Positions 25,533 to 32,551 of a stretch of 64,000 nucleotides of DNA are shown here, piece by piece. The notes below the pieces were generated by a model. That model made no database searches, was not told the DNA's origin, and was given only the letters and a program-made list of their open reading frames with translations. The position numbers and the translations under genes are program-made. Numbering within the stretch: the stretch's first letter is position 1; each line of letters starts with the position of its first letter. This DNA comes from Microvenator marinus (GTDB lineage: Bacteria > Myxococcota_A > Bradymonadia > Bradymonadales > Bradymonadaceae), in the NCBI RefSeq assembly GCF_007993755.1, contig NZ_CP042467.1:1960001-2024000 (forward strand), read 5' to 3'.

Positions 25533-25558
25533 TGCCGGTCTAAAATTTGGCTAGAAGC

Positions 25559-25604
25559 GGCCCTTTCTGTCACGCAAAGTGCGTGGCATAAAGGGCCATG
25601 TTTT
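25559..25604 (+). terminator. Near-perfect hairpin with T-run overlapping the helicase start
   Basis: Bases 25559-25576 pair with 25580-25597 around an AAG loop, with one mismatch and one G-T wobble in 18 bp (GGCCCTTT pairs with AAAGGGCC, CACGCA with TGCGTG). TTTTT follows at 25600-25604. It looks like an intrinsic terminator for the vWA gene. The helicase ATG at 25598 abuts the stem with no Shine-Dalgarno sequence. Confidence 0.7.
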
Positions 25605-28600
25605 TGCTACCCGACCTCAACGAAATCCCCCACCTTTACTCGTCGCCTCTAGGGCGAGTATGGCGCCTTGAAGCCGAAGAACTCGGACTCCAAGACACCT
25701 TGCATTCTCATTTTTTGGTGCGGAAATTGCCGGCATCTGGCTCGTTTCTGACCACGTCTGCGATGCTTGGGTTGGCAGCAACCACTGAGTCGAGAGTTGG
25801 ACGCCCCGCAACACACTGGCTGCAGGATAAAGGCGGTGTCTACATCGCCACGCCCAGTACTCCTCATCAGGTTCCGATCTTGGAATCGAGCGCTCCATTG
25901 ACCTTTCACGACGCGGTCGAATCATGGCGCCCGATTGCGCTTGCCGTTCAGCATTGCCACTCGAAGGGGCTCACGCATGGAAACGTCAATCCATGGTCGG
26001 TGCACCGAGATAGAGAGCTCATACTGCTGGATGCGGGCACATGGATCGCGGACGCCCCGGGCGTTTCTCAATGGTGGCCACAGAGTGTGAGGCGCGCGGA
26101 GAGTCACCTTAGAGAATGCGGCACCAAAGATGATGTCTTAAACCTCGCACGCCTGCTTGTCTGGCTGACACGACCTGGCGATCCCGAGGCCGCACCAAGT
26201 CTTGAGCACCTGCCTGCATGGGCCATTGCGCCGCTCGCAAGTGTGCTCAATGACGAAGGGCATATCACGCGTGTTTCAGACCTACTCAAAGCGCTCGCAC
26301 CAGCTCCCATCCTGAGTGAGTCCAACACCGAGGCTACGAATTCGGTGCTCTTTGCGCGCGTCTCACACGTGGAAGATATTCAACATCCGACCAAGGGGCC
26401 CGGCATCAAGTTCTGGCTGCTTCACCCGAGACCCGAGGCTGAAAACTCGGCAACCAGGGCCCAGGGCGCCTTTTTCTACAAAGCGTCTCACGGAGATGTT
26501 TACAATAGCATCGCCCATATCTGGGAGGGCGCTGAGGTCAATATCCTCGATGCTCTCGAGGTCGAGGACTCCAAAGGCCGCGTATTCTTGAGCGCGAAAC
26601 CCGAGACGCTTCCGGTGATTGAGCCACATTGGCCAGTTACGGTCACTAATGTTCTCAAGGCCGACGGCTGCGTAAGTCGCATGCTCGTCGACACCCGAGA
26701 AGACGAGCTGCCGAATATCCACCTGATCTTCGGGTCCTTGGTCCACGAGTTCCTGGAGTACACGCGCCGAGATCCTGAGCTCGACTTCTACTCGCTATGG
26801 GAGCAGGTCCTTCCGAGGTACCGCGTAGGACTTCTGGCAGCCGGACTCGGCGAGTCGGACATGGAGAAGTTTGAAGAAGATGCTCGGGCTCATTTTAATA
26901 ATATCGTGGCGTTTGCGAGGGGGCGCTCACGCGAAAGAAGCGTCGAGAATCCCACTTGGACAGGCGATTATGTGGAGGTGAGCCGGTACTCTTCGATCTT
27001 CGGACTCGAGGGCCGTATTGACCTTGTGACCGAGCACGAGCGCGACGGTTTGCAGATCGTGGAGCTCAAGACAGGGAGCGCACGTGAAGAGCATTTGACC
27101 CAGCTTCGCTCCTACAAGCTCCTCTGGGACCCGTTGGTCCAGGAACAGAAGAAGGAGGTCTCGGGATACCTGCTCTACTCCAAGGATGCGTCTATGCGCT
27201 CGGCTCCGCTCGAGGACCCGATGCGGGAGCGCAGGTTGCTTCGCGCCCGAAACGCGCTCGTCGCATGGCACCGAAGTTCGGCGCGCGATCCTACCATCAT
27301 TCCGCAATATTTCATGGAAGTCCCGGAGGACTGTAATGCGCGGGCTTGCCGCTGGCGTAAAGAGACGTGCAAACGACAGACGGCCATTCTCGGTTTTGGA
27401 CAGGTAGAGCCGGAACCTAAGACTTGGAAAGGCTTCGAGCCCGAGCTTGTGGCCCGCGCACAGACTTGGTGGGCGCACTTTAATCATCTCCTCGAGATGG
27501 AGAACTGGGTCGAAGGCGAAGAACTAGGCCTGATGCTTCAAACGGGACGGCTCCGTGAACGCATCGATGGCTTCAGAGCCGCTCCAGGGCTGGAACTAGG
27601 CGGCTTTGATCGTGCGTCTGGTCGTGTGAATTTCACCGGAGATCACCGAAACATTTTCCATATCGGTCAGACGGTGATTGCACATCGCAACGACTTCCAC
27701 GGCTCTCATATTGTGCGGGCCCAGGTTGAGTCCGTTGGGCCCAATCACATCGAACTGGCCACTCAGGGAATGCCGGCCCCTGAGCAACTTCCGAGGTCAA
27801 ACTGGATCTTGGACGTTCTCCCGATGCGCATTGGTTATCGAAGCGCGCAGAGGTCCATCTATCGAATTCTAGATCAGCAACGCCCTGAAATTTTCGAGGT
27901 TCTCTTTAGGCCCGAATCAGCCCAGGCCGCCTCATTGATGGAGGCCCAAGATTGTGACGATACTCTTGAGACTCTGGACGTAGAGCTCAATGCTGACCAG
28001 ATGAATGCCGTGGTGCACGGGCTCAATGCACCTGTGGGGGCTCTGATTCAGGGGCCGCCCGGCACCGGCAAGACAACAGTGATTGCGCACCTTGCTCATG
28101 AACTCGCGCGCCAGGGTCAGTACGTCTTGGTGGCGGCCCAAACCAACACCGCCGTAGACACCATGCTTTCTCGAATCCTGGATGTAGGCTGGGTCGATTT
28201 TATCCGCGTGGGTACCCCTGAAAGGCACCCTCAACTCGCCGCGCGGCTGACCGCTCGTGGGCTTGCTGCGGACGAGTATTTTAGCGATTCGCTCGGACAG
28301 GTGACCCCGAAACTCGAACAACTCAAGAGACGGCTTCTCGAGGCGCCTATCACAGGAGTTACGGCCCACCGAGCTGCATCGAGCGACCTGATGTCCATCG
28401 CGACTCGAGCGCGAGGCCCCGTGCCTTGGGACGTGGTCATTGTGGACGAGGCCACTCAACTCACCGAGCCTATGACCCTTGCGGCCATTTCGCGTGCCAA
28501 GCGCTTCATCCTTGTGGGTGACCATCGCCAACTTCCTCCGGTAGTCCGGCACGAGAGCCTGATGACACCTTTTCATGAGGAGCTTTCCCGGCAACGCCTG

Positions 28601-29320
28601 AGTTCGAACGCCCCTCAACTTGACCTCTTTGGTGCCCCTGTGGTTCAGGAGCGGCCGATGGAGCTCAGAGGGCTTGACCAAAGCCTCTTTGAACGCCTCA
28701 TCAATGCGGGGCTAAGTTACACCATGCTCCGCGAGCAATATCGTATGAACGAAGAGATTATGGCGTTCTCAAACCGTCATTTCTACGATTCTGAACTCTT
28801 GGCCCATCCGTCCGTGGCAAAGAGGCGACTTGAGATTGAGGAAAGCTCTCCAAATCCGATTCTTGCGCCCAACAATCCCGTTGTTTTCGTCAATGTGGAG
28901 CCCAGTGAAGTTACCCAGGGACGCGACAATCCCGACGAGGCGAAAGCCAGCGCTGAATTGGTGGACGCGTTGATTCAAGCCGGTGTGGAGCCTCGAGAAA
29001 TAGGCGTTATCTCACCGTTTCGAGCTCAAGTTCACGCGATTCGAAAACTGCTCTTTGAGCGGCAGATTGCGGACGTGGACGTGGACACGGTGGAGCGGTA
29101 TCAGGGCAGTGAACGCGACGTGATTCTCGTCAGCCTGGTCAAGACAGAGCGTGCCGGCGAGTTCATCTCAGACGCGAGACGACTCAACGTAACGTTGACG
29201 CGAGCGCGCAAGAAGCTAATCATCCTCGGCTATCGAAGTTGCTTGATCGGCGACCCTTTGATGCGAGCACTCATCGAGCAAGACGAAACCCTATGCGTAG
29301 ATTGGCCACAACATTCCTGA
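25598..29320 (+). CDS. Pseudokinase-like/Dna2-like Fe-S nuclease/SF1 helicase fusion
   Basis: This is a 1240-residue DNA-processing protein. Residues about 1-240 resemble a degenerate protein kinase lobe: LTHGNVNPWSV (125-135) in place of HRDxKxxN, and LLDAGTW in place of DFG. Residues about 350-600 form a PD-(D/E)xK nuclease of the Cas4/Dna2 group, with H383, D475, and E489/K491 in VELKTG. A Cys before the core (C358) and three after it (C579, C584, C591) fit a 4Fe-4S cluster. Residues about 790-1215 are an SF1 helicase: Walker A GPPGTGKT (819-826), VDEATQ (949-954), GDHRQLPP (974-981), LREQYRM (1044-1050) and VTLTRARKK (1198-1206). The nuclease and helicase match Dna2. The kinase-like N-terminus is unusual and by eye. 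Confidence 0.85.
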   Translation: MFLLPDLNEIPHLYSSPLGRVWRLEAEELGLQDTLHSHFLVRKLPASGSFLTTSAMLGLAATTESRVGRPATHWLQDKGGVYIATPSTPHQVPILESSAPLTFHDAVESWRPIALAVQHCHSKGLTHGNVNPWSVHRDRELILLDAGTWIADAPGVSQWWPQSVRRAESHLRECGTKDDVLNLARLLVWLTRPGDPEAAPSLEHLPAWAIAPLASVLNDEGHITRVSDLLKALAPAPILSESNTEATNSVLFARVSHVEDIQHPTKGPGIKFWLLHPRPEAENSATRAQGAFFYKASHGDVYNSIAHIWEGAEVNILDALEVEDSKGRVFLSAKPETLPVIEPHWPVTVTNVLKADGCVSRMLVDTREDELPNIHLIFGSLVHEFLEYTRRDPELDFYSLWEQVLPRYRVGLLAAGLGESDMEKFEEDARAHFNNIVAFARGRSRERSVENPTWTGDYVEVSRYSSIFGLEGRIDLVTEHERDGLQIVELKTGSAREEHLTQLRSYKLLWDPLVQEQKKEVSGYLLYSKDASMRSAPLEDPMRERRLLRARNALVAWHRSSARDPTIIPQYFMEVPEDCNARACRWRKETCKRQTAILGFGQVEPEPKTWKGFEPELVARAQTWWAHFNHLLEMENWVEGEELGLMLQTGRLRERIDGFRAAPGLELGGFDRASGRVNFTGDHRNIFHIGQTVIAHRNDFHGSHIVRAQVESVGPNHIELATQGMPAPEQLPRSNWILDVLPMRIGYRSAQRSIYRILDQQRPEIFEVLFRPESAQAASLMEAQDCDDTLETLDVELNADQMNAVVHGLNAPVGALIQGPPGTGKTTVIAHLAHELARQGQYVLVAAQTNTAVDTMLSRILDVGWVDFIRVGTPERHPQLAARLTARGLAADEYFSDSLGQVTPKLEQLKRRLLEAPITGVTAHRAASSDLMSIATRARGPVPWDVVIVDEATQLTEPMTLAAISRAKRFILVGDHRQLPPVVRHESLMTPFHEELSRQRLSSNAPQLDLFGAPVVQERPMELRGLDQSLFERLINAGLSYTMLREQYRMNEEIMAFSNRHFYDSELLAHPSVAKRRLEIEESSPNPILAPNNPVVFVNVEPSEVTQGRDNPDEAKASAELVDALIQAGVEPREIGVISPFRAQVHAIRKLLFERQIADVDVDTVERYQGSERDVILVSLVKTERAGEFISDARRLNVTLTRARKKLIILGYRSCLIGDPLMRALIEQDETLCVDWPQHS

Positions 29321-30477
29321 TCCCTTTGGTGCTCCTGATTGGAGCGTGCGATGAGGAAAAACCCCAAAAACCAGTCCCGTACGAACCTCTGAAGCCCAAG
29401 CCCATTGAGGCCAAGCGCGTTGAGCCCTTGGACGTAGAGAACGCCCCTCAACGTACCTTGAAGCTCGGCCCATCTGAGCGTTTTGAAAGTTGTACCGAGA
29501 TCGCGCAAAAGGACGAACGCGTCATCTCGACCCTCGAATGGCGTGAGAATTTTCAAGCCTGGGCTTTAGCCTGCGACGCTGAAGTTGCTCAAAGGGGCGA
29601 GGATGGGCGCTATTACCTAGCGTGGATGGTGAGCCCGAACTCAGCGAACAAAGATCTGCGCGTAGCCGCATGGGATAAAGACGGCGCGTACCTATGGTCT
29701 TTCTTGCTCGATCGCTCGCGTGAGGCCGATGGTTTTCTGGCGAACTTCCGGAAGTCATTTGTCACGGAGCTCGGCCAAAAACATGTGTGCGCGGGAACGC
29801 TTTACGAAGGCGGGACTGACGCCGCATGCGTGGATTGGAAGTCCGGTGAGGTGGAGTGGAGCGGACGCATGCCATTTTGGGCAGGTATGGCGCCTCAAGG
29901 CGTGGGAGGAAGCCTCGTCGTCGCTGACTTGAGCGGAATCTCCGAGCGCTACCCGTACTCGGGGGCTGAGATGCGCCATCGTGCGCTCGACGCATCGGGA
30001 GGCCGCTCTGCGCTTTACGCGAGCAACGACTCTCACCTCTTCTTCTCGCCTCCACGAACCGAAGAACCTCGCCTGATCAAATACGACCTTAAGACTTTCG
30101 AACCACTTTGGATGGTGCCATTGGAGGCTGATGCAGCGCCTGGCCTCGGCACCGTAAGCTCCAAACACAATCTGGTGATCTTCAAGGTAGCCCGAGACTT
30201 GGTCGCCATGAGCACCGAGAATGGGAATGAAGTTTGGCGACTTGAAGTTGGTGAAGATCGACCTTCAATCGCGGAATTCGAAAACGGAATTCTTGTCCTT
30301 AATCGCCATCCAGAGCGAAACAACTCGCTCATCGCAATCTCGGGTGATGGAAAACTGCTCTGGCGCGCTGAGGTGCCGGCCGGAATTCTCTCGGTCCACA
30401 CAGACTCCTCAACCATCCTCTTGCGAAGTGTCCGGGCGTCTCAAAGCATTCTAGAAATCGCCGAGGATTCAGAGTGA
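29293..30477 (+). CDS. PQQ-type beta-propeller lipoprotein
   Basis: The 394-residue protein has a signal peptide with lipobox (LLIGAC) and a Pro-rich linker. It then carries repeated blade motifs ending in a Trp, such as GAYLWSFLLD, GEVEWSGRMP, GNEVWRLEVG and GKLLWRAEVP, typical of PQQ-like propellers such as BamB. It is probably a periplasmic scaffold. I chose the ATG at 29293, which opens directly into the signal peptide; it overlaps the helicase end by 28 nt. The CPBP gene overlaps its stop (GTGA). Confidence 0.85.
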   Translation: MRRLATTFLIPLVLLIGACDEEKPQKPVPYEPLKPKPIEAKRVEPLDVENAPQRTLKLGPSERFESCTEIAQKDERVISTLEWRENFQAWALACDAEVAQRGEDGRYYLAWMVSPNSANKDLRVAAWDKDGAYLWSFLLDRSREADGFLANFRKSFVTELGQKHVCAGTLYEGGTDAACVDWKSGEVEWSGRMPFWAGMAPQGVGGSLVVADLSGISERYPYSGAEMRHRALDASGGRSALYASNDSHLFFSPPRTEEPRLIKYDLKTFEPLWMVPLEADAAPGLGTVSSKHNLVIFKVARDLVAMSTENGNEVWRLEVGEDRPSIAEFENGILVLNRHPERNNSLIAISGDGKLLWRAEVPAGILSVHTDSSTILLRSVRASQSILEIAEDSE

Positions 30478-31571
30478 ATCTGACGAGCCGCGAAATCTTT
30501 CGAGAGGTGCTGAGCACCTTTGGATATGTGCTCGTCGCGATCATCGCTTTCGCCGTGTTGGCGGGATTCATCCCTTTCATCTCGGAGTTGCTCTACGCCA
30601 TCGTCGCATTCATCTTTATCAAGGCCGCTCAGCGCATGATGGACAAGCGTGAGCTGCCAAGCGAGGCCTGTGGAATCACGCATCACGGTATGCTCTCGGG
30701 AATTGCATGGGGGCTCGGCGCAACCCTTATCACCCTGCCCTTTTTCTGGGTCGGATACGTGGTCTGGGAAACCAAGGTCATGGAACGCGAGTACCAATTC
30801 GACCTCGAGAACTACTGGCATTGGCCCATCACGATGGAGGGTGAACCCAAAGGCTGGGGAGAGAGGCCCGGGGTGTGGGTATGGTCGCAAGAGAAGACGC
30901 TTCAGATTGGCCTAAAAAGGGCAGAATCGCCGCATTCATTGACTTTGACATCGACTTCACCCTTCGTCCCTGGGGTCGTGGGGCCAGTGGTTATCAAACC
31001 AGACGCAGCTTTCACATCCAAAACCCCTCAAACCGAATGGCAAATCATCCCTCGTGGCACATCACGAGCGCGGGTCTGGGTGACCCATACCCGTGATTTG
31101 AGCTTGGAGATAAAGCCCACGATCGGCACCGAAGTCTCTTGGACAATCTTCAAGGGCCGCGGAGCCAGTGAGGTCGACGGAGCACTTTTTGAGGCGTCCA
31201 AGGGCCTGTGGTGGATTCTTCTCTGGGTAGCGACTCAGTTTCTTTTGATCGCGTATCCAGAAGAGTATTTCTACCGCGGCTGGATGCAATCGCGGCTTGA
31301 GCTCGCGTGGGAAAAGCGCGCTGAGGAAAGAGGGACGACTGCCAAAGAGTGGTTCGGATTTACGCCGGCTATCTTCTTGACGAGTTTCCTTTTTGGCATC
31401 GGCCATCTGCTGGTTCCCATCGGCGGTGTGTGGATGGTGCAGCGAATGAGCGTGTTCTTCCCGTCGCTGATTTTTGGCTGGCTTCGCCGAAAAACAGGAA
31501 GCATTACAGCCCCAATCGTCTATCACGCGTTTGCCAATCTGATGGTTATCTTCCTGGCTGTCCACTTCTAG
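30474..31571 (+). CDS. CPBP-family intramembrane glutamic protease with extracytoplasmic insert
   Basis: The 365-residue membrane protein has the Rce1/CPBP active-site motifs: EExxxR in PEEYFYRGW (E263, E264, R268), the His in FGIGHLL (H311) and HxxxN in HAFAN (H351, N355). Three hydrophobic helices come first. Residues about 100-240 are a soluble segment with WHWP, Ser/Thr-rich and beta-like stretches inserted before the catalytic core, longer than is typical. It could cleave or sort membrane proteins. The start is GTG overlapping the propeller lipoprotein stop, so the two are coupled. Confidence 0.88.
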   Translation: MNLTSREIFREVLSTFGYVLVAIIAFAVLAGFIPFISELLYAIVAFIFIKAAQRMMDKRELPSEACGITHHGMLSGIAWGLGATLITLPFFWVGYVVWETKVMEREYQFDLENYWHWPITMEGEPKGWGERPGVWVWSQEKTLQIGLKRAESPHSLTLTSTSPFVPGVVGPVVIKPDAAFTSKTPQTEWQIIPRGTSRARVWVTHTRDLSLEIKPTIGTEVSWTIFKGRGASEVDGALFEASKGLWWILLWVATQFLLIAYPEEYFYRGWMQSRLELAWEKRAEERGTTAKEWFGFTPAIFLTSFLFGIGHLLVPIGGVWMVQRMSVFFPSLIFGWLRRKTGSITAPIVYHAFANLMVIFLAVHF

Positions 31572-31600
31572 GGGTGCGGAAGTTTGATCTTCCACTTTTA

Positions 31601-32551
31601 ATGGCAACTCCACCTGCCACTTGCCACTCAAAACCCAAATGGGTCACACATTTAGGGGGGGCCGCGCTGGCACTGGCAAACACCGCCACATTTGAGCAGC
31701 TCGACGACGACGCTCGGCTCGACAAGCGAGGCGCAAAGGCAATCGTAGAGAAGCGGCCGCTGACCTCTCTCGCACAACTCGACAGCCTGCCGTACGTCAA
31801 CGCAGCACAGTTTGAGACCATGCTGACCCTCTCAAAATCTCTCGGCGTCTACGAAGAGATCAAGGTGGACTACCAGTACAACACCCGTGCGGAACGGTTC
31901 ATCGAAGTCAAGACCACCACCGACTGGATCACGGAATCACACGCTTCGACCTCGCCGATGACACCAGATGTTGACCGCTATACTCGACATGACCACTACC
32001 ACTACATCCTCGAGCTGGACAAAGAAGGCAATATCATTGGCGGTGAGTGGGTCGGTGCCTCCAAGACAAGCCACCCAGACTTCTTCTGGTTGCCAACGCG
32101 CGCTATCAGTGGAAACCCACATATTAGCCTCGAAGAAGTTCGCGAAATGGTCAAAGAGAGCCGTGGCGAAGTCTCGGACGGCACTGGCTACAAGAGCTTC
32201 ACCAACACCAATCGCATCGCGATTCCGGACAACGACCCTGTGGGCGCGACTTCGGTTCTCGAGATTGCCGAAGCTGGCGCGGTGCGTGACCTCACCATCG
32301 ACATCGACATTGCGCATACCTACCGCGGCGACCTCGTCATCGAGCTTCAGAAAGATAACGTGAAAGTCTTGATTTGGGACGGAAGCAAAGAAGCCAATGG
32401 CTGGGAAGACAACGTTGTCATCACCTCCGAGTCCGTGGACGGATTCCTTGGCGCCCCGATCACCGGAAACTGGACCTTGACGGTGCGCGACACGGCGGGA
32501 GCTGACGTGGGTGAAGTTGTAAGCTGGGGATTGAACGTCCTCGCGAACTAG
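31601..32551 (+). CDS. HhH-like and P-domain protein
   Basis: The product is about 316 residues. Residues about 15-75 resemble a ComEA/HhH-type segment (LDKRGAKAIVEKRPL, LDSLPYVNAAQFETML). Residues about 80-195 include HYHYILELDKEGNIIGGEW and SHPDFFWLP, reminiscent of the transglutaminase-elicitor family. The C-terminal 110 residues match the proprotein-convertase P-domain: IPDNDPVGATSVLEI, IAHTYRGDLVIEL, GNWTLTVRDTAGAD. P-domain proteins are normally secreted, but the signal peptide here is weak. The start is uncertain: ATG at 31601 or GTG at 31574. It follows the CPBP gene by about 30 nt. Confidence 0.7.
   Translation: MATPPATCHSKPKWVTHLGGAALALANTATFEQLDDDARLDKRGAKAIVEKRPLTSLAQLDSLPYVNAAQFETMLTLSKSLGVYEEIKVDYQYNTRAERFIEVKTTTDWITESHASTSPMTPDVDRYTRHDHYHYILELDKEGNIIGGEWVGASKTSHPDFFWLPTRAISGNPHISLEEVREMVKESRGEVSDGTGYKSFTNTNRIAIPDNDPVGATSVLEIAEAGAVRDLTIDIDIAHTYRGDLVIELQKDNVKVLIWDGSKEANGWEDNVVITSESVDGFLGAPITGNWTLTVRDTAGADVGEVVSWGLNVLAN

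What the first reader, a model, noticed from the sequence alone, without database searches (positions are those of the whole stretch)
25598..29320. Pseudokinase-like domain fused to a Dna2-type Fe-S nuclease-helicase
The nuclease and helicase halves are Dna2-like with a plausible 4Fe-4S set (C358, C579, C584, C591). The N-terminal 240 residues carry kinase-like marks (HGNVNPW, LLDAG) without catalytic residues. Such a composition could couple DNA-end processing to signalling or anti-phage defence. It stands alone, with no adjacent defence genes recognised.
Basis: partly seen in the sequence, partly recalled or inferred. Interest (0 to 1): 0.75.

Follow-up and report, generated by a model that had tools for sequence, protein, structure and literature searches.

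The report
Dna2-like nuclease-helicase carrying a pseudokinase
The gene encodes a bacterial relative of the eukaryotic DNA-repair enzyme Dna2 with a decayed protein kinase fused to its front; close relatives still carry an intact kinase, so the domain seems to have turned from enzyme into a likely regulator during ordinary vertical descent, and the gene opens a small conserved operon rather than standing alone.

Summary
Residues 1-236 fold as a protein kinase (AlphaFold pLDDT 82 for residues 1-300, from an alignment without canonical kinases; best match M. tuberculosis PknI, Z 19.8). Residues 256-1240 match Dna2 over their whole length (profile E 1.5e-106). All four proposed Fe-S cysteines and the nuclease D...ExK residues are invariant in 22 homologues.

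The kinase decays in steps: intact in family f4, half-decayed in f2, dead in the window's family f1. The core gene tree follows GyrB (r 0.91), so this happened during vertical descent. Purifying selection still acts on the dead domain (dN/dS 0.12-0.17).

'Stands alone' is wrong. The protein is NCBIfam NF040671 ('PLuB system helicase-like'), first gene of an operon with a PQQ-repeat lipoprotein and the myxosortase MrtP; it occurs in 19 of 21 f1 genomes. No defence genes surround it and no plasmid or phage carries it in full length. Still, intact-kinase relatives match the Mokosh protein MkoA in kinase and helicase, so an immune role is not excluded. Best reading: a constitutive DNA-end or flap processing enzyme gated by its pseudokinase. 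Function untested; new variant of a known kind.

The parts
25598..29320 (+). Gene for the 1240-aa pseudokinase / Dna2-type nuclease-helicase (NCBIfam NF040671, PLuB_AAA)
   Evidence: ORF; 1241 bits, cut-off 999, residues 7-1236
25598..26305 (+). Residues 1-236: complete protein-kinase fold without beta3 Lys (Arg) or HRD Asp: pseudokinase
   Evidence: PknI Z 19.8, rmsd 3.1, 217 aligned; motif counts
26363..26617 (+). Residues 256-340: beta-rich domain that lies where Dna2's own N-terminal domain lies
   Evidence: secondary structure; alignment to Dna2 begins at model residue 1 = residue 256
26627..27412 (+). Residues 344-605: PD-(D/E)XK nuclease with H383, D475, E489-x-K491 and the four-Cys set
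26669..26671 (+). Codon of C358, upstream cysteine; aligns with Cys136 of mouse Dna2
27332..27370 (+). Codons of C579, C584, C591 (C-x4-C-x6-C); C584 and C591 align with Cys393 and Cys402 of Dna2
27965..29317 (+). Residues 790-1240: SF1B (Upf1/Dna2-type) helicase, motifs intact ([36 protein letters not shown])
29293..30477 (+). PQQ-repeat beta-propeller lipoprotein (NF040673, lipobox LIGAC), overlaps the end of the first gene by 28 nt
30474..31571 (+). Myxosortase MrtP (NF040674), intramembrane glutamic protease with EExxxR / FxxxH / HxxxN intact; overlaps the previous gene by 4 nt
25550..25607 (+). Strong hairpin over the ribosome-binding region and start codon, followed by U5; terminator of the upstream gene and/or translational control
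   Evidence: -33.7 kcal/mol, z -5.4

Best explanation
A chromosomal, vertically inherited Dna2-type enzyme whose N-terminal Hanks kinase has decayed into a pseudokinase. Shown by sequence and model: a kinase fold without beta3 Lys and HRD Asp; a complete Dna2-like core with intact nuclease and helicase motifs and four invariant cysteines; an operon with a PQQ-repeat lipoprotein and MrtP. Inferred: the core binds a 4Fe-4S cluster, loads on ssDNA at ends or flaps, translocates and cuts; the ancestral kinase phosphorylated itself or a partner, and in the window's family the dead domain stays as an allosteric or docking module that gates the nuclease, in the way the kinase-like domains of RNase L and Ire1 gate their nucleases (analogy from general knowledge). 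The most likely biological role is constitutive DNA-end or flap processing alongside RecBC(D). The operon partners act at the envelope, so the link to them is likely one of co-expression.
For: Fold. Dna2 core: (Dna2 is the only match along the whole model, 888 residues aligned). Invariant Cys and nuclease residues. Graded decay: Pkinase 132-154 bits in f4, 57-64 in f2, none in f1; motif counts. Vertical descent: core tree vs GyrB r 0.906, Mantel 0/2000, 11 of 18 splits shared. Retention: 19 of 21 f1 genomes, dN/dS 0.12-0.17 in the pseudokinase domain. Operon. No mobility, no defence neighbours.
Against: No experiment; gating is inferred. The genome already has two RecBC(D)-like sets, so the need for another end-processing enzyme is unclear. 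Genus g4 lacks the gene (G003, G015), so it is dispensable. The operon partners are a surface lipoprotein and a protein-sorting protease, which a pure repair role does not predict. Intact-kinase relatives resemble Mokosh MkoA.
Confidence: 0.5

Rival explanations
1. A fixed, chromosomal anti-phage effector related in design to Mokosh: kinase/pseudokinase senses or transmits, SF1 helicase surveys, and a cis PD-(D/E)XK nuclease replaces the separate PLD nuclease MkoB.
For: MkoA profile PDLC03920 matches intact-kinase homologues in kinase (MkoA 33-281) and helicase (about 538/605-1076), E 7e-98 and 1.2e-96; it is also the best PADLOC hit of the window copy.
Against: No other defence genes at 16 related loci scanned, apart from generic Ser/Thr kinases that hit kinase-containing PADLOC models; vertical descent; near-universal in f1; no full-length copy on plasmids or phages. 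In the window copy the best MkoA match lies in the helicase part, shared by all Upf1/Dna2 helicases, and its N-terminal domain alone matches no PADLOC model.
Confidence: 0.25
2. Part of envelope or predation biology: the operon couples breakdown of incoming or prey DNA to a surface lipoprotein and myxosortase-sorted proteins.
For: Overlapping operon with a lipoprotein and MrtP in most f1 genomes; f1 includes Lujinxingia, order Bradymonadales, and this order is described as facultative predators (PMC11509652, PMC7460792, abstracts).
Against: No secretion signal is evident on the first gene; MrtP occurs across the class without it, and in f2 and f4 the gene is not next to MrtP or PQQ. In G015 PQQ and MrtP lie together while the helicase is not found.
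Confidence: 0.1
3. The N-terminal domain is a relic without function: the kinase died and is being lost, and the protein works as plain Dna2.
For: The domain is less conserved than the nuclease (0.38 vs 0.53 mean identity) and has lost its catalytic residues.
Against: dN/dS 0.12-0.17, similar to the helicase (0.10-0.18); complete fold predicted; G19, W22, W74, H121, P132, D179, P206 invariant in 13 f1 sequences; no full-length f1 copy has lost it.
Confidence: 0.1

Closest known systems
PLuB_AAA, NCBIfam NF040671 ('PLuB system helicase-like protein') with NF040673 and MrtP NF040674
   Same: Full-length match at 1241 bits, over the cut-off of 999; same neighbours matching NF040673 and NF040674.
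   Different: This is the family itself. The NCBIfam name states no kinase domain, nuclease or mechanism; no paper in the library uses the name.
Dna2 nuclease-helicase (mouse, PDB 5ean/5eaw/5eax)
   Same: Order beta-domain, Fe-S nuclease, stalk/barrel, SF1 helicase; 888 residues aligned, Z 25.4; profile E 1.5e-106.
   Different: Kinase-fold domain in front; cysteine spacing C-x4-C-x6-C instead of C-x2-C-x5-C.
Mokosh MkoA (PADLOC PDLC03920)
   Same: Intact-kinase homologues match the profile in kinase and helicase in the same order.
   Different: A Dna2-type nuclease sits in cis; no MkoB match at E<=1e-20 among scanned neighbours; not in a defence context.
DLHK bacterial pseudokinases (O'Boyle et al. 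2025, PMC12599244)
   Same: Pseudokinases linked to DEAD-like helicase and DNA2 domains; lack the beta3 Lys.
   Different: DLHK keep the HRD Asp and have a degraded DFG; here the HRD Asp is lost in 13 of 13 f1 copies and the DFG Asp is kept in 11 of 13.

Membership tests
PLuB_AAA (NF040671) | Score over the curated cut-off, full length | tested here: met
   1241.3 bits vs 999, residues 7-1236
PLuB_AAA (NF040671) | Neighbours matching NF040673 and MrtP NF040674 | tested here: met
   540.6 and 357.2 bits
Dna2 family | PD-(D/E)XK nuclease fused N-terminally to an SF1 helicase, matching Dna2 along the chain | tested here: met
   E 1.5e-106, one stretch 77-963; 888 residues aligned, Z 25.4
Dna2 family | Four cysteines for a 4Fe-4S cluster, one before and three after the nuclease core | tested here: met
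   Invariant in 22 sequences; one of the three downstream positions is shifted relative to Dna2. Cluster binding itself was not tested.
Dna2 family | ssDNA cleavage and unwinding | not testable with these tools
   needs purified protein
Protein kinase fold / pseudokinase | Bilobal kinase fold | tested here: met
   PknI Z 19.8, 217 residues aligned, rmsd 3.1
Protein kinase fold / pseudokinase | Loss of catalytic residues (beta3 Lys, HRD Asp) | tested here: met
   f1: Lys 0/13 (Arg 11/13), HRD Asp 0/13
Active Hanks-type kinase (window copy) | beta3 Lys, HRD Asp and DFG Asp all present | tested here: not met
   intact only in the f4 homologues
DLHK pseudokinases | Retains the HRD aspartate | tested here: not met
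   0 of 13 f1 copies against the description in PMC12599244
Mokosh | Kinase plus SF1 helicase match to MkoA | tested here: inconclusive
   met by f4 homologues; the window copy matches best in the helicase part and its N-terminal domain alone does not match
Mokosh | Separate PLD nuclease partner MkoB | tested here: inconclusive
   no PADLOC match of that kind at E<=1e-20 among 116 scanned neighbours; not every neighbour was included and this definition of Mokosh is from memory
Anti-phage defence system | Association with defence islands or mobile elements | tested here: not met

The most novel reading that the evidence does not exclude
A lineage in which a kinase-gated, Mokosh-like Dna2 nuclease-helicase became a fixed core gene while its kinase turned, step by step and by vertical descent, into an allosteric pseudokinase switch: a bacterial counterpart of RNase L/Ire1-type control of a nuclease, with the intermediates still alive.
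Probability: 0.25. Interest if true: 0.75.

Novelty: new variant of a known kind. Interest (0 to 1): 0.5.

Why it matters
Living homologues span intact kinase, half-decayed kinase and dead kinase on one vertically inherited Dna2-like core, so swapping or removing N-terminal domains could test directly what a kinase domain does for a DNA nuclease-helicase and what remains when catalysis is lost. It also gives NCBIfam's unexplained 'PLuB' protein a domain structure and a testable function.

Tried and rejected
Stand-alone gene: rejected, overlapping operon. Defence island: no support in PADLOC scans of neighbours; the hits there are models such as PD-T4-6 and mad6 that also match ordinary Ser/Thr kinases. 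Sole end-resection enzyme: rejected, two RecBC(D)-like sets are present. Mobile origin: no full-length match in viral contigs, phages or plasmids. DLHK membership: the HRD Asp criterion fails. A first GyrB tree used antisense ORFs and was discarded (redone). The origin of the name PLuB could not be found; Persicimonas-Lujinxingia-Bradymonas is a guess. Literature searches for the name gave nothing.

Full report
Observation. The ORF at 25598-29320 (+) encodes 1240 aa. Pfam finds the PD-(D/E)XK nuclease (PF12705), a weak Dna2 nuclease match (PF08696, just under its cut-off) and the SF1 helicase (PF13086/PF13087), and nothing in residues 1-351. NCBIfam matches the whole protein to NF040671, 'PLuB system helicase-like protein', at 1241 bits against a cut-off of 999.

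The N-terminal domain is a kinase fold. AlphaFold2 was run on residues 1-300 with only 13 sequences of the window's own family (f1, none with canonical kinase motifs): pLDDT 82, pTM 0.74. Foldseek against the PDB gave 1,581 matches at E<=1e-3, the listed ones being protein kinases, and VIA-align gave PknI of M. tuberculosis at Z 19.8, 217 residues, rmsd 3.1, spanning residues 2-236.

It is catalytically dead in the window's family and looks alive in relatives. In 13 f1 sequences the beta3 Lys is Arg in 11 and never Lys, the HRD Asp is absent in all, the DFG Asp remains in 11, and the structural Asp of helix F (D179) remains in all. In 3 sequences of family f2 (same order) the Lys and DFG are kept but HRD has become H[LR]G. 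In 6 sequences of family f4 (same class) all motifs are intact. Pfam Pkinase scores follow: 132-154 bits in f4, 57-64 in f2, no match in f1.

The rest is a Dna2-type enzyme. A profile of residues 256-1240 finds mouse Dna2 at E 1.5e-106 in one stretch, ahead of Ighmbp2 and Upf1. Its AlphaFold model (pLDDT 84.8, pTM 0.87) matches Dna2 first in Foldseek (E 1.3e-50). In VIA-align Ighmbp2 (Z 27.0) scores slightly above Dna2 (Z 25.4), but Dna2 is the one aligned along the whole model (888 against 557 residues). C358, C579, C584, C591, H383, D475, E489 and K491 are invariant. C358 aligns with Dna2 Cys136, C584 with Cys393 and C591 with Cys402; the spacing differs (C-x4-C-x6-C here). Fe-S binding is therefore likely but untested.

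Surroundings. The gene overlaps a PQQ-repeat lipoprotein gene (29293-30477, NF040673), which overlaps myxosortase MrtP (30474-31571, NF040674; EExxxR, FxxxH and HxxxN present). By match coordinates, the PQQ gene follows directly in 18 of 19 f1 genomes that have the helicase gene, and the complete immediate trio is seen in 16. Exceptions: G006 (two genes in between, on a contig with adapter-like ends), G014 (about 1.1 kb before MrtP) and G019 (MrtP on another contig). In f2 and f4 the gene lacks these neighbours; MrtP itself is widespread in the class.

Distribution. Among 379 genomes of the phylum, 29 match at E<=1e-60: 19 of 21 f1, 3 of 5 f2 and 6 of 6 f4, plus one partial helicase elsewhere. 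In 84,980 species the nuclease-domain search returned 24 loci, including Lujinxingia vulgaris (order Bradymonadales) and one distant Flammeovirga protein without a Pfam kinase match. That scan uses short patterns and is not exhaustive. Viral contigs gave none, and plasmids and phages gave helicase-only matches.

Descent. The tree of the nuclease-helicase core agrees with GyrB: r 0.906, 0 of 2000 Mantel permutations as high, 11 of 18 splits shared, one supported conflict deep in f1. So the stepwise kinase loss most likely happened within vertical descent, assuming f4 is the outgroup, as the taxonomy implies. In three Lujinxingia-group genomes (genus g13) dN/dS of the pseudokinase is 0.12-0.17, of the nuclease 0.03-0.05 and of the helicase 0.10-0.18, so the dead domain is still constrained.

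Defence question. The MkoA (Mokosh) profile is the best PADLOC hit; in f4 homologues it covers kinase and helicase in the same order. MkoA is thus the closest known defence protein in design, but the nuclease here is a Dna2-type domain in cis. Neighbourhood scans found only models that also match ordinary Ser/Thr kinases. With vertical descent and near-fixation in f1, a constitutive role is favoured over mobile defence; defence stays possible at about one in four.

Mechanism. Shown: architecture, conservation, decay, operon. Inferred: 4Fe-4S binding, DNA-end or flap cleavage, and gating by the pseudokinase. The genome has two RecBC(D)-like sets, so this is not its only end-processing enzyme.

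Prior work. A 2025 review describes DLHK pseudokinases linked to DEAD-like helicase and DNA2 domains (PMC12599244), so pseudokinase-DNA2 fusions as a kind are known. DLHK keep the HRD Asp, which f1 lacks. No paper on the PLuB system was found in the library.

Noticed in passing
25550-25607: A strong hairpin (-33.7 kcal/mol, z -5.4) covers the ribosome-binding region and start codon of the gene and is followed by U5. It may be the terminator of the upstream gene, a translational switch, or both; upstream stretches of 12 relatives show no obvious match in the same place (read by eye).
   Followed up: partly
L111 (G000:C1:2604000-2620000) and L112 (G000:C1:4714000-4730000): The genome carries two RecBC-like sets, one with a RecD.
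   Followed up: partly
L115 (G006:C195): Contig ends encode adapter-like peptides (SPSPRDRQ, DVYKRQ); the contig also has two genes between helicase and PQQ gene, so it may be a chimaeric assembly.
   Followed up: partly
window 31349-32551: ORF downstream of MrtP with a transglutaminase-elicitor, a proprotein-convertase P-domain and a weak helix-hairpin-helix match; an odd mixture, not examined.
   Followed up: no
L107 (Flammeovirga pacifica): A 1160-aa Dna2-like protein without a Pfam kinase match in a Bacteroidota genome; possible kinase-less relative of the core.
   Followed up: partly
G003 and G015 (genus g4): The helicase gene is not found in this genus; G003 has about 10 contigs, so the loss is probably real there. 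In G003 the MrtP neighbour is a protein without Pfam matches and not the PQQ protein.
   Followed up: partly
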